The position numbers were made by a program, and so were the translations under genes. From assembly GCF_000243155.2 (NCBI RefSeq), contig NC_018017.1, positions 496,001 to 560,000 on the forward strand: a DNA stretch of 64,000 bases, written 5' to 3'. This document shows, one piece after another, positions 5,804-26,941 of the stretch; position 1 is the stretch's first letter, and each line of letters begins with the position of its first letter. Source of the DNA: Desulfitobacterium dehalogenans ATCC 51507 (GTDB lineage Bacteria; Bacillota; Desulfitobacteriia; Desulfitobacteriales; Desulfitobacteriaceae). The notes beneath the pieces are model-generated. The model ran no database searches. It saw only the letters and a program-made list of their open reading frames with translations, and was not told the origin of the DNA.

Positions 5804-6768
5804 GGGATTTTTTAAGAGACAAGCTGCTCTTCATCATCATGGTCTTGTTAACCGCCGGGATCGGTGGTTTTGTTTTATACGCCTTGAATGATCCCCCTGC
5901 CGCCATAATCGTCGTCAATGTGGTGTATCTTTCCGGCAGCCTTGCCGCCTTGCTGGGGGAATACCTCCCCAAAAGAGCATTCTATAAAGAGCTGTTCTCC
6001 CAGCTTAACGATTTGGACAGAAAGCACTATATCTCTGAAATTATGGAAGCTCCCACATTTTATGAAGGAGCAGCCCTTGCGGAAGTGCTGCAGGCTGTCG
6101 GTAAATCGATGAACGACGAGATTGGGGCACACGGGAGAGCAATCCGCGACTATCGGGACTATGTAGAGCTGTGGGTCCACGAAATCAAGACCCCTATCAG
6201 CGCGGCAAAGCTGATCTGTGAGAACAATGGATACGCTAAGGTATCAGATGAAGTGGACAAGATCGAAAACTATGTGGAGCAAGCCCTGTTTTACGCCCGA
6301 AGCGGCTCCGTGGAAAAGGATTATGTCATTCGGAAAACCGAATTGAAAACCCTGATTGCCCAGCTGCTTAAGAAAAACGCCGGATACCTCATCGCCAATA
6401 AAGTCAAAATAAATCTGCAAGCAGAAGGAATGGTCTATACCGATTCCAAATGGCTGCTCTTTATTTTGCAGCAGCTGCTGGATAACGCGGTGAAATACGG
6501 CGCGCAAACCATTGCCTTTAGTTTCAGGGACGGAGTATTGACCCTTAAGGATGACGGTATCGGGATTCCCCCTCAGGATTTGCCCCGTGTGTTCGAGCGG
6601 GGCTTTACAGGGGAAAACGGACGCATAACCGGGAAATCCACAGGGATGGGACTCTATCTCTGCCAGGAACTGTGTGGCAAATTGGGACTCACTCTCTCGG
6701 CGGCAGCGGATGAGGGTACCGAGATAGCCATTACATTTCCAAGAAATTCTTATGTGACATTAGTGTAA
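5794..6768 (+). CDS. Intramembrane-sensing histidine kinase, BceS-like
   Basis: The 324-residue kinase has two closely spaced N-terminal membrane helices (~residues 11-30 and 36-56) and almost no extracytoplasmic loop, as in the BceS group, which gets its signal from the partner permease. The phosphoacceptor His129 lies in ELWVHEIKTPIS. ATP-binding boxes follow: N-box QQLLDNAVKYGA, G1 DDGIGIP and G2 STGMGLYL. The start overlaps the response-regulator stop by 10 bp. The linkage to two BceAB-type transporters supports a peptide-antibiotic sensing and detoxification role. Confidence 0.92.
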   Translation: MQLRDFLRDKLLFIIMVLLTAGIGGFVLYALNDPPAAIIVVNVVYLSGSLAALLGEYLPKRAFYKELFSQLNDLDRKHYISEIMEAPTFYEGAALAEVLQAVGKSMNDEIGAHGRAIRDYRDYVELWVHEIKTPISAAKLICENNGYAKVSDEVDKIENYVEQALFYARSGSVEKDYVIRKTELKTLIAQLLKKNAGYLIANKVKINLQAEGMVYTDSKWLLFILQQLLDNAVKYGAQTIAFSFRDGVLTLKDDGIGIPPQDLPRVFERGFTGENGRITGKSTGMGLYLCQELCGKLGLTLSAAADEGTEIAITFPRNSYVTLV

Positions 6769-6823
6769 GTTTGCTGTAAGGTCCATCCATGGCAGATGTG
6801 TTGGGCGGGATTTATACTGTAAG
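6764..6823 (+). promoter_or_regulatory. Promoter region of module 2 with TGTAAG direct repeats
   Basis: TGTAAG occurs at 6764-6769 and 6775-6780, exactly 11 bp apart (one helix turn, the usual geometry for OmpR-family regulators), and a third copy lies at 6818-6823. A possible -10 TATACT (6813-6818) sits 17 bp after a weak -35 TGGCAG. The regulator BceR-like protein is encoded just upstream, so this is a candidate binding site. Inference only. Confidence 0.4.
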
Positions 6824-6847
6824 CATATCAACCGAAAGGAGCTTCTT

Positions 6848-7606
6848 ATGCAACCGATTGTACAAGTTCAACATTTAGAAAAAATATACGGAAACCGCAG
6901 CAACATTACGAAAGCCCTGAACGGTGTGAGCTTTGAAGTGTTCCCGGGAGAATATATCGGAGTGATGGGCTCATCGGGGAGCGGCAAAACCACCCTGCTC
7001 AACTGTATTTCCACCATTGACCGGGCGACGGCGGGGCAGATATTGATTGAAGGAAAGGACATTACCAAGCTGAAGCCTTCGGAGGTGGCTGATTTCCGCT
7101 GCCGCAAGCTGGGATTCATTTTTCAGGATTATAACCTCCTTGATACCCTCACCGCTTATGAGAATATCGCTCTGGCCTTGACGATCGCCAAAACGAATCC
7201 CCGCCAGGTGGATGGAAAAATCCGCGCTGTCGCGGAAAAGCTCGGCATCACGGACGTGCTGGCCAAGTATCCTGTACAGATGTCGGGGGGACAGCGTCAG
7301 CGCGTCTCTTCAGCCCGGGCGATTGTAACCCATCCCGTTCTGGTGTTGGCCGACGAACCCACCGGCGCTCTGGACAGCAAATCCGCAAAAGCCTTGCTGG
7401 AAAGCTTCCGCGCCATGGTGCAGGAGCTGCAGAGCACGATTCTCATGGTGACCCACGACCCCTTCGCCGCAAGCTACTGCGACCGGATTCTCTTCATCCG
7501 GGACGGCAGGCTGTTCACCGAGCTGCGGCGCGGGGTGGATACACGGAAGGACTTCTTTGACAAAATCATTGAGGTGATGGCCGTTTTGGGAGGGGAAGCG
7601 GAATGA
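6848..7606 (+). CDS. BceA-type ABC transporter ATP-binding protein (module 2)
   Basis: The 252-residue ATPase is a clear paralogue of the module 1 ATPase. Motifs are Walker A GSSGSGKTT, Q-loop FIFQDYNLLDT, signature MSGGQRQR, Walker B LVLADEPTGALDSKS and H-loop VTHDP. ATG 6848 follows GAAAGGAGCTTCTT at good spacing. Its stop overlaps the permease start by 4 bp. It lies directly downstream of the BceRS pair, the standard place for the regulated target of such a pair. Confidence 0.92.
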   Translation: MQPIVQVQHLEKIYGNRSNITKALNGVSFEVFPGEYIGVMGSSGSGKTTLLNCISTIDRATAGQILIEGKDITKLKPSEVADFRCRKLGFIFQDYNLLDTLTAYENIALALTIAKTNPRQVDGKIRAVAEKLGITDVLAKYPVQMSGGQRQRVSSARAIVTHPVLVLADEPTGALDSKSAKALLESFRAMVQELQSTILMVTHDPFAASYCDRILFIRDGRLFTELRRGVDTRKDFFDKIIEVMAVLGGEAE

Positions 7607-25940: not shown

Positions 25941-26303
25941 ATGCCGAAGAAATATATGATGTTAAGACCTGAAGAAGAGGCTGCAGCGGAAAGGGAATCA
26001 ACCCTCAAGGAGATGATTTGCTTCGGGGAGAACTCTAAGAATTATCGCTTTCCGGATATCGAGGTCAATGATGAGAACCAAGTCAGACTGCAGAAGCTGG
26101 TCGATGAATACAAGGTCCTGATAGAGCAGGAAGAGAACAAGGACCTGGATCTTAAGACATTCTTTGCCGGGAAACACATCAATATCGAGCATGTGGATGA
26201 GTTTGAAGAGCCGCGGGATATGTTTGTTCTGTTGATCTACTTCAAAGAGGTCTGCAAGCTTACGGATTTTGAGCCTGTAGCCGTCATTGAGAAATTTGCC
26301 TGA
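25941..26303 (+). CDS. Small acidic protein of unknown function (120 aa)
   Basis: ATG follows GAAAGGATAGAAGG. The protein is hydrophilic and acidic with no membrane segment. Two parts are visible: a charged N-terminus (RPEEEAAAERESTLKEMI), and a C-terminus that looks folded (AGKHINIEHVDEFEEPRDMF, then LLIYFKEVCKLTDFEP). I do not recognise the family. It stands alone between the divergent sigma operon and the convergent HesB-like gene. Confidence 0.7.
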   Translation: MPKKYMMLRPEEEAAAERESTLKEMICFGENSKNYRFPDIEVNDENQVRLQKLVDEYKVLIEQEENKDLDLKTFFAGKHINIEHVDEFEEPRDMFVLLIYFKEVCKLTDFEPVAVIEKFA

Positions 26304-26320: not shown

Positions 26321-26362
26321 TAAAAAAATAGAGGTTTAAGTATTTGAATATACCTAAACCTC
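26321..26362 (-). terminator. Rho-independent terminator of the HesB-like gene
   Basis: Read on the minus strand, GGAGGTTTAGGTAT pairs with ATACTTAAACCTC around a short loop and is followed by TATTTTTTTAT. It lies 50 nt after the HesB-like stop codon. Confidence 0.85.
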
Positions 26363-26414
26363 CAGCGTACTGATCCTGAGCTCGCCTGTTTCGTGTTCTT
26401 TTAGCGGACTTTGG

Positions 26415-26711
26415 CTAACAGGAAGAAAGTCCTGCCGATCTAATCGAAAAGCCTCTGTTAGAGTAATTATCCGAATAGTCGATTACTGAATCTGAGATAT
26501 AGTCTTCTAAACTGGAATTAAAGACAACGGTAATTCCCTGGGATTCGACGGAGATATCGTCTTGGTGAGTTAACTCATCCAGAGTTAAACTTAATTGCGG
26601 ACCCCCTCAGCCAAAGCCGCCGAAAGCAATTCTCAGCTGAGTGTCCTGGGGATTATCCTGGGCAGCAATGATTTCTTTTAACTTTTCAGCTGCTTTTTCA
26701 GAAATATGCAT
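26415..26711 (-). CDS. HesB-like selenoprotein with in-frame UGA (Sec35)
   Basis: ATG 26711 follows AAGGAGGGTGATCAC and opens a 98-residue HesB/IscA-like protein (MHISEKAAEKLKEIIAAQ...). Codon 35 is TGA (26607-26609), in the context AFGGFG-U-GGPQLSLTLDE, at the place where HesB/IscA proteins keep a conserved Cys or Gly-rich metal-binding loop. The sequence after the UGA stays family-like to a TAG preceded by Cys98. A 7-bp hairpin begins 18 nt after the UGA. HesB-like selenoproteins are a described family in anaerobic Firmicutes. A standard gene caller would split or drop this gene. Role inferred: Fe-S or persulfide/metal handling. Confidence 0.85.
26570..26588 (-). promoter_or_regulatory. Candidate bacterial SECIS hairpin
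   Basis: On the minus strand TTAACTC-TGGAT-GAGTTAA forms a 7-bp stem with a G-containing 5-nt loop. The loop begins 25 nt after the UGA, inside the 16-37 nt window usual for SelB-binding SECIS elements. It lies within the coding sequence, as bacterial SECIS elements do. Confidence 0.65.
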
Positions 26712-26790
26712 GTGATCACCCTCCTTATCAGTATTTTGTTTAGCTGATCGGTATTTTACTCTTAGATTTGTTTTCCACCCTTATAAGAGT

Positions 26791-26841
26791 ATTATAAAGG
26801 GTTGATTGAATAATTTCAATATACCCCCAAGGGGTATATTG
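26791..26841 (-). promoter_or_regulatory. Sigma-A promoter overlapped by a CsoR/CstR-like palindrome
   Basis: Read on the minus strand, TTGAAA (26814-26819) is spaced 17 bp from TATAAT (26791-26796), 80 bp before the HesB-like ATG. A palindrome with perfect 11-bp arms (CAATATACCCC / GGGGTATATTG, 26817-26841) overlaps the -35 box. Its ATACCCC...GGGGTAT core is the operator pattern of CsoR-family repressors (copper CsoR or persulfide CstR). The T run on the other side also makes it resemble a terminator, but no plus-strand gene needs one there. Confidence 0.65.
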
Positions 26842-26941
26842 ATTTTTTTTAAGCTTTCGCCATGGGAATGCATAAGTTATCGGATACTTATTCTTCAATG
26901 GGAAACACTAGCTAAAAAAGAGAAGGAACCGGCGTGATGCT

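What the first reader, a model, noticed from the sequence alone, without database searches (positions are those of the whole stretch)
26415..26711. HesB-like gene with an in-frame UGA decoding as selenocysteine
A 98-codon frame with good ribosome binding site is interrupted only by TGA at codon 35 (FGGFG-U-GGPQLSL), the metal/thiol loop of HesB/IscA proteins, and remains family-like to its end. A 7-bp hairpin with a G-containing loop starts 18 nt downstream. HesB-like selenoproteins are known in anaerobes, but routine gene callers miss them, and no role in the cell is settled.
Basis: partly seen in the sequence, partly recalled or inferred. Interest (0 to 1): 0.75.

Follow-up and report, generated by a model that had tools for sequence, protein, structure and literature searches.

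The report
Selenium-containing IscA-like protein gene
This small gene of an anaerobic bacterium almost certainly reads an internal stop codon as the selenium amino acid selenocysteine, as its relatives do; the protein family is known but its job is not, and a repressor-type control site found here in front of the gene, shared with sulfur and thiol-redox genes, gives a testable lead to that job.

Summary
Confirmed, with one addition: the frame lies on the minus strand (26711..26415). It encodes a 98-aa HesB/IscA-fold protein with UGA at codon 35, the position of the first cluster-binding Cys of IscA. The genome has selA, selB, two tRNA-Sec genes and two selD. Of 88 homologues collected, 57 have TGA and 31 Cys at this codon. 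A bSECIS hairpin with compensatory changes follows the UGA. This is a HesB-like selenoprotein, a family known since about 2005. It belongs to an all-Sec subclade, distinct from the Cys paralogue in the same genome; most subclade members carry just one selenol (U35) and one C-terminal Cys. New here: a near-perfect CsoR-type operator (ATATACCCCTTGGGGGTATAT) abuts the promoter. Its core precedes 13 of 57 Sec genes, 0 of 31 Cys genes and 2 of 8,800 shuffles. The same kind of site precedes csoR-trxA, rhodanese-ferredoxin and (in relatives) TrxB-like genes; in one relative the selenoprotein gene follows a ferredoxin gene behind such a site. I infer that the selenoprotein belongs to a CsoR-controlled sulfane-sulfur/thiol-redox regulon with thioredoxin. 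Effector and chemistry (persulfide handling, Fe-S carriage or metal binding) are unproven.

The parts
26415..26711 (-). HesB-like selenoprotein CDS, 98 aa, start ATG 26711, stop TAG 26417-26415
   Evidence: translation with TGA=U; PF01521 E=1e-8; predicted model matches E. coli IscA, TM 0.81
26607..26609 (-). in-frame TGA, codon 35, selenocysteine in place of the first conserved Cys; U-G-G-P fits the family's UxGP motif
   Evidence: TGA in 57 and Cys codon in 31 of 88 homologues at this column; UxGP listed for HesB-like selenoproteins in PMC13188914
26570..26588 (-). bSECIS hairpin: 5' arm 26588-26582, loop UGGAU 26581-26577, 3' arm 26576-26570; loop starts 25 nt after the UGA
   Evidence: 46 distinct sequences: 93.8% of cells paired, 4 of 7 pairs with changes on both sides, covariation score 0.289 (shuffled 0.177; slid versions at most 0.084)
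26719..26726 (-). Shine-Dalgarno AAGGAGGG
   Evidence: sequence, 7 nt before the ATG
26791..26819 (-). sigma-70 type promoter TTGAAA-17-TATAAT (11 of 12)
26820..26838 (-). CsoR-type operator TATACCCCTTGGGGGTATA abutting the -35 box; with one flanking base on each side it differs at one specified position from the published type-2 consensus ATATACCCCTNAGGGGTATAT
   Evidence: only perfect TATACCCCNNNGGGGTATA in the 4.32-Mb genome; consensus in PMC3902906; core upstream of 13 of 57 Sec homologues
26329..26364 (-). intrinsic terminator; the gene is probably monocistronic
   Evidence: 15-pair stem with T tract

Best explanation
The gene encodes a HesB-like (IscA-fold) selenoprotein. Shown by sequence: UGA35 stands in place of the first conserved Cys, a covarying bSECIS hairpin lies behind it (loop 25 nt after the UGA), and the genome carries SelA, SelB, tRNA-Sec and SelD; from this follows that UGA35 is decoded as Sec. 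Shown by sequence: the promoter is abutted by a CsoR-family operator, of the kind that also precedes a csoR-trxA operon in this genome. Inferred: a CsoR-family repressor (best candidate: the PF02583 protein at genome 3001686-3001928, in operon with thioredoxin) holds the gene off until a sulfane-sulfur/thiol-redox signal, or a metal, releases it. Inferred, weaker: the protein works as a selenol-thiol protein of that regulon. Sec35 attacks or carries a sulfane sulfur (or binds a metal or cluster), the C-terminal Cys98 is the resolving or second ligand residue, and thioredoxin resets it. My estimates: selenoprotein 0.96; CsoR-family control 0.8; control by the CsoR-TrxA repressor in particular 0.65; persulfide/sulfane-sulfur chemistry 0.4. 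The confidence below is for the first two steps together with their reading as Sec insertion and repressor control.
For: Recoding: frame and homology across the TGA; TGA kept in orthologues; selB and selA adjacent, tRNA-Sec next to them and a second copy, selD twice, one itself with TGA; hairpin covariation; post-TGA purifying selection; IscA fold, pLDDT 89.5. A HesB-like protein was identified as a selenoprotein by mutagenesis and 75Se labelling in Methanococcus maripaludis (PMC11097638). Control: operator unique in the genome in its perfect form; TACCC-N5-GGGTA within 250 nt upstream of 13 of 57 Sec genes from several branches of the tree, 0 of 31 Cys genes, 2 of 8,800 shuffles, 0 for the reversed pattern. 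In the relative G004 the site (L135 6024) stands before a ferredoxin gene followed by hesB(Sec); in the own genome a like site stands before a rhodanese-ferredoxin operon. The same site precedes csoR-trxA in G000, G003, G004, G006, G310, G209, G092, G176, G356 and G058. In G359, G356 and G310 csoR-trxA holds the only PF02583 repressor found. Other genes behind such sites in relatives: TrxB-like reductases, ferredoxins, a C_GCAxxG_C_C redox protein, SBF-family transporters. A CsoR-like repressor with ATACC-N6-GGTAT sites that senses sulfane sulfur and controls a rhodanese gene is known (PMC7533328).
Against: No protein, labelling or expression data. CsoR-family operators do not tell the effector: copper-sensing CsoR uses the same kind of site (PMC3902906), and the candidate repressor of this genome keeps the Cys-His-Cys pattern of copper sensors (my reading), although the f14 repressors have Tyr in place of His. 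Three quarters of the Sec genes, and the f3 and f26 members of the window's subclade, show no such site in 250 nt. In G359 and G395 the csoR-trxA operon itself shows no site by this pattern. The palindrome also scores as a plus-strand terminator-like site in this genome. Copper control was not excluded.
Confidence: 0.8

Rival explanations
1. A-type Fe-S carrier: the selenoprotein does the ordinary IscA/ErpA job, with Sec35 and Cys98 of two subunits holding a cluster, and is induced to rebuild clusters under stress.
For: Fold and sequence profile are IscA/ErpA-like; several regulon genes are ferredoxins or Fe-S proteins.
Against: IscA and ErpA use three Cys (established knowledge); the window protein and 10 of the other 12 members of its subclade have only U plus one tail Cys, and the tail is poorly ordered in the model (residues 96-98 under 50 pLDDT). 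Scores stay below all curated A-type carrier cut-offs.
Confidence: 0.35
2. Metal-stress protein: the CsoR-type repressor senses Cu(I) or another soft metal and the selenol-thiol pair binds it.
For: The operator fits the copper-CsoR type-2 consensus; the candidate repressor keeps Cys-His-Cys (my reading); SBF-family transporters stand behind such sites in relatives.
Against: The copA-linked CsoR of this genome (3129893) has no matching operator in the stretch fetched, so copper seems to have its own circuit; the f14 repressors lack the His; rhodanese, thioredoxin and ferredoxins are not usual copper genes.
Confidence: 0.2
3. Dead or truncated gene: the TGA is a real stop or a sequencing error and the rest is a relic.
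For: None beyond the stop codon itself.
Against: TGA at the same codon in 57 homologues, hairpin covariation, selection after the TGA, complete Sec machinery.
Confidence: 0.02
4. The palindrome upstream is only an intrinsic terminator of plus-strand (antisense) transcription, not an operator.
For: Scored as terminator-like on plus: 12 pairs plus T8.
Against: No plus-strand gene ends there (ligD starts downstream, the hesB gene is antisense). Homologues in other families keep the TACCC-N5-GGGTA core at the promoter without such a tail.
Confidence: 0.1

Closest known systems
HesB-like selenoprotein family (TIGR01911 in PMC13188914; survey of 2006, PMC1794560)
   Same: IscA fold, Sec at the first Cys, UxGP motif, bSECIS behind the UGA, anaerobes with the Sec trait
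   Different: Scores 40.5 bits for TIGR01911 (cut-off 66.35) and 57.6 for NF038090 (cut-off 85), but the other Sec homologues tested also stay below both. It is in a separate, all-Sec subclade from the genome's Cys paralogue.
Cys HesB paralogue of the same genome (2699280-2699552, L055)
   Same: same family and G[UC]GGP loop, 41% identity
   Different: Cys instead of Sec, Cys/Gly-rich tail, no CsoR-type site upstream; groups with Cys forms of the family
IscA / ErpA / SufA A-type carriers
   Same: fold (TM about 0.8 to 1r94 and 1s98)
   Different: Sec for Cys35 and only one C-terminal Cys instead of the Cys-x-Cys pair
CstR / CsoR-like sulfane-sulfur regulons (Streptomyces coelicolor ScCsoR, PMC7533328)
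   Same: CsoR-family repressor, ATACC..GGTAT palindromes, rhodanese among the targets
   Different: Here the candidate repressor is in operon with thioredoxin and a selenoprotein gene is a target; effector unknown

Membership tests
HesB-like selenoprotein | HesB/IscA domain (PF01521) spanning the UGA | tested here: met
   E=1e-8, 35.8 bits against cut-off 26.3
HesB-like selenoprotein | UGA aligned with the first conserved Cys, UxGP motif | tested here: met
   motif from PMC13188914
HesB-like selenoprotein | bSECIS: upper stem 4-16 bp, G in the first two loop positions, loop 16-37 nt after the UGA | tested here: met
   7 bp, loop UGGAU, 25 nt; covariation; rules from PMC13188914
HesB-like selenoprotein | Sec machinery in the genome | tested here: met
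   selB over cut-off 242 (371.3 bits with its neighbours), adjacent selA, two tRNA-Sec, two selD
HesB-like selenoprotein | selenium shown in the protein | not testable with these tools
   needs 75Se labelling or mass spectrometry
NCBIfam TIGR01911 / NF038090 as curated models | score above the curated cut-off | tested here: not met
   40.5 against 66.35 and 57.6 against 85; so it is filed under the broad family, not under these models
A-type Fe-S carrier (IscA/ErpA/SufA) | three cluster-binding Cys (first Cys and C-terminal Cys-x-Cys) | tested here: not met
   U35 plus a single Cys98
A-type Fe-S carrier (IscA/ErpA/SufA) | fold | tested here: met
target of a CsoR-family repressor | type-2 operator at the promoter | tested here: met
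   one mismatch to the consensus, abutting the -35 box; enriched upstream of Sec homologues
target of a CsoR-family repressor | binding and derepression by an effector | not testable with these tools
   needs gel shift and transcript measurement

The most novel reading that the evidence does not exclude
HesB-like selenoproteins of Firmicutes are effectors of a so far undescribed CsoR-TrxA regulon: selenol-thiol proteins induced by sulfane sulfur or thiol stress that handle persulfides on an IscA scaffold (or repair clusters), reset by the co-regulated thioredoxin system. This would give the orphan family its first physiological role.
Probability: 0.35. Interest if true: 0.7.

Novelty: new member of a known kind. 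Interest (0 to 1): 0.42.

Why it matters
The family has been listed among selenoproteins for some twenty years without a settled function. A M. maripaludis disruption mutant showed no nitrogen-fixation defect (PMC11097638), so there is little to test. A shared operator with csoR-trxA, rhodanese-ferredoxin and TrxB-like genes points to sulfane-sulfur, thiol or metal stress as the condition under which to look. It also shows that this genus has a Sec form besides the Cys form: the 2006 survey discussed a D. hafniense Cys form with a remnant SECIS and listed the Sec form as lost, whereas a relative of the same genus here (G003, unnamed) carries the Sec form too.

Tried and rejected
Plus-strand reading of the given coordinates: several stops, rejected. 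Direct scan of genome contigs with the protein: only two distant relatives, so named relatives could not be obtained. Rfam on the locus: nothing. Single-sequence folding energy of the hairpin: not significant, so it was not used as evidence. The second operator-like site in the window (11837) lies inside the coding sequence of a molybdopterin oxidoreductase and was discarded as chance. The CstR-like repressor next to SQR-like and DsrC-like genes (754149) was considered as the regulator: no matching operator in front of it. The copA-linked CsoR was considered likewise: no matching operator. Searches for papers linking HesB-like selenoproteins to CsoR-type control found none in the held library; the library is not complete. 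The two CstR papers most wanted for operator sequences were not held.

Full report
WHAT IS THERE. The frame is on the minus strand, window 26711..26415. It has a Shine-Dalgarno (AAGGAGGG, 7 nt before the ATG), 98 codons, TGA at codon 35 and stop TAG. A promoter TTGAAA-17-TATAAT (26819-26791) precedes it and an intrinsic terminator (26364-26329) follows it, so it is probably transcribed alone; the neighbours (ligD, plus strand from 26942, and a plus-strand gene 25941-26303) run the other way. In the whole genome (one contig, 4,321,753 bp) the frame was found by the PF01521 profile with '1 TGA' inside.

UGA IS READ AS SEC. Machinery: selB above its curated cut-off with selA directly beside it; tRNA-Sec at 3638295 next to them and a second at 483826, both called by the Rfam model and by ARAGORN with anticodon TCA; selD twice, one with its own internal TGA. 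Comparative: orthologues in the same family at 81, 56 and 52% identity have TGA at the same codon; searches of class and phylum gave many more. Of 88 distinct homologues collected, 57 have TGA and 31 a Cys codon at this column. The alignment of 49 UGA regions shows a hairpin 22-28/34-40 with loop UGGAU: 93.8% of cells paired, 4 of 7 pairs with changes on both sides, covariation score 0.289 against 0.177 in shuffles and at most 0.084 when slid. In the window's subclade the G-C pair of the rest of the family becomes A-U, and in two members the neighbouring A-U becomes G-C. It fits the published bSECIS rules. Caveat: the structure was drawn from these sequences, and energy alone is not significant. 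Selection: dN/dS 0.33 before and 0.47 after the TGA in frame, above 1.2 in the wrong frames (few substitutions).

WHAT THE PROTEIN IS. Pfam Fe-S_biosyn. The model predicted from 42 homologues (pLDDT 89.5) matches IscA 1r94 and 1s98 with TM about 0.8, then HI1723, SufA and DsrR; the profile finds the same solved relatives. NCBIfam places it between HesB_Se, ErpA and the accessory family, below every cut-off; other Sec relatives are likewise below the two selenoprotein models. U35 (Sec or Cys) is invariant and a C-terminal Cys is nearly so. In the window's 13-member subclade 11 members have no other Cys, so the canonical A-type Cys-x-Cys is absent. On the tree (88 rows, 111 columns, many forks weak) the window protein sits in an all-Sec subclade of 13 (support 96/85). 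The genome's other HesB-like protein (L055, Cys) sits in another well-supported group of 54 that mixes Sec and Cys forms. The 2006 survey described a D. hafniense Cys form with a remnant SECIS, presumably the counterpart of that paralogue.

NEW: A CsoR-TYPE OPERATOR. Immediately upstream of the -35 box lies TATACCCCTTGGGGGTATA (26838-26820). It is the only perfect TATACCCC-N3-GGGGTATA of the genome; with one flanking base on each side it differs at a single specified position from the published type-2 CsoR consensus ATATACCCCTNAGGGGTATAT (PMC3902906). The core TACCC-N5-GGGTA occurs within 250 nt upstream of 13 of 57 Sec homologues, on several branches of the tree, mostly close behind a -10-like box, in none of 31 Cys homologues, in 2 of 8,800 dinucleotide shuffles, and never for the reversed pattern. 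The Fisher value for Sec against Cys (0.003) ignores relatedness. In G004 the site precedes a ferredoxin gene with hesB(Sec) behind it in the same direction, so all four Desulfitobacteriaceae members of the subclade lie behind such a site.

THE REGULON. In ten genomes ATACCC-N5-GGGTAT occurs 29 times, against 5 for the reversed control. Genes behind the sites: rhodanese-ferredoxin (own genome and G003), rhodanese (G004), ferredoxins, a Fe-S flavoprotein, TrxB-like reductases, a C_GCAxxG_C_C redox protein, SBF transporters, hesB(Sec); a few sites look like chance. Four PF02583 repressors occur in the own genome. One, at 3001686, is in operon with thioredoxin and has TACCCCCTATGGGTA directly behind its own TTGACA/TATAAT promoter. 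The same csoR-trxA arrangement with the site occurs in G003, G004, G006, G092, G176, G209, G310 and G356 and G058; in G359, G310 and G356 csoR-trxA carries the only PF02583 match (two of these genomes are incomplete). In G359 and G395 the csoR-trxA operon itself shows no such site by this pattern. That makes the CsoR-TrxA protein the best candidate repressor (inference).

MECHANISM. Shown by sequence: the recoding signals, fold family, U/Cys pair, operator. Inferred: repression by a CsoR-family protein and induction by a thiol-reactive or metal signal. A CsoR-like protein that senses sulfane sulfur binds ATACC-N6-GGTAT and represses persulfide dioxygenase and rhodanese genes (PMC7533328); CstR homologues often repress rhodaneses and SQR (PMC10318464). 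Copper-CsoR uses nearly the same site, and the candidate of this genome keeps a Cys-His-Cys pattern, while the f14 repressors have Tyr for the His. I hold sulfane-sulfur/thiol redox as somewhat more likely than Fe-S carriage or metal binding, because of thioredoxin, TrxB and rhodanese in the regulon and because the canonical three-Cys cluster site is missing.

KNOWN OR NEW. The selenoprotein family is known, and a HesB-like protein was identified by mutagenesis and 75Se labelling as a selenoprotein in M. maripaludis, function unclear (PMC11097638). The two tRNA-Sec genes are already reported. The subclade's U-plus-one-Cys anatomy and the CsoR-TrxA link were not found in the papers held, which is not proof of novelty.

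Noticed in passing
genome 483826-483918 (L041 1501-1597), about 12 kb before the window: Second tRNA-Sec gene, non-identical to the one beside selA/selB, behind an NrfD-like membrane subunit gene. Two tRNA-Sec are already listed for D. dehalogenans in PMC5330540; purpose unknown.
   Followed up: partly
genome 3001686-3001928 (L146/L130): CsoR-family repressor in operon with thioredoxin, own promoter followed by the same operator; conserved in many relatives.
   Followed up: yes
genome 754149-754379 (L148): Another PF02583 repressor without the copper-type His, beside SQR-like, DsrC-like and DsrE-like genes: a probable CstR circuit with a different operator.
   Followed up: partly
genome 1035831 and 4000739: Two selD genes, one with an internal TGA (probable Sec form) and one without.
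   Followed up: no
genome 1994202-1994218 (L149, L187): CsoR-type operator before a rhodanese-ferredoxin operon.
   Followed up: partly
L136 (G006) 6520-7402: In this relative the selenoprotein gene is followed at once by a SAM-dependent methyltransferase gene.
   Followed up: no
window 26816-26842, plus strand: The operator palindrome also scores as a terminator-like site on plus, before ligD.
   Followed up: partly
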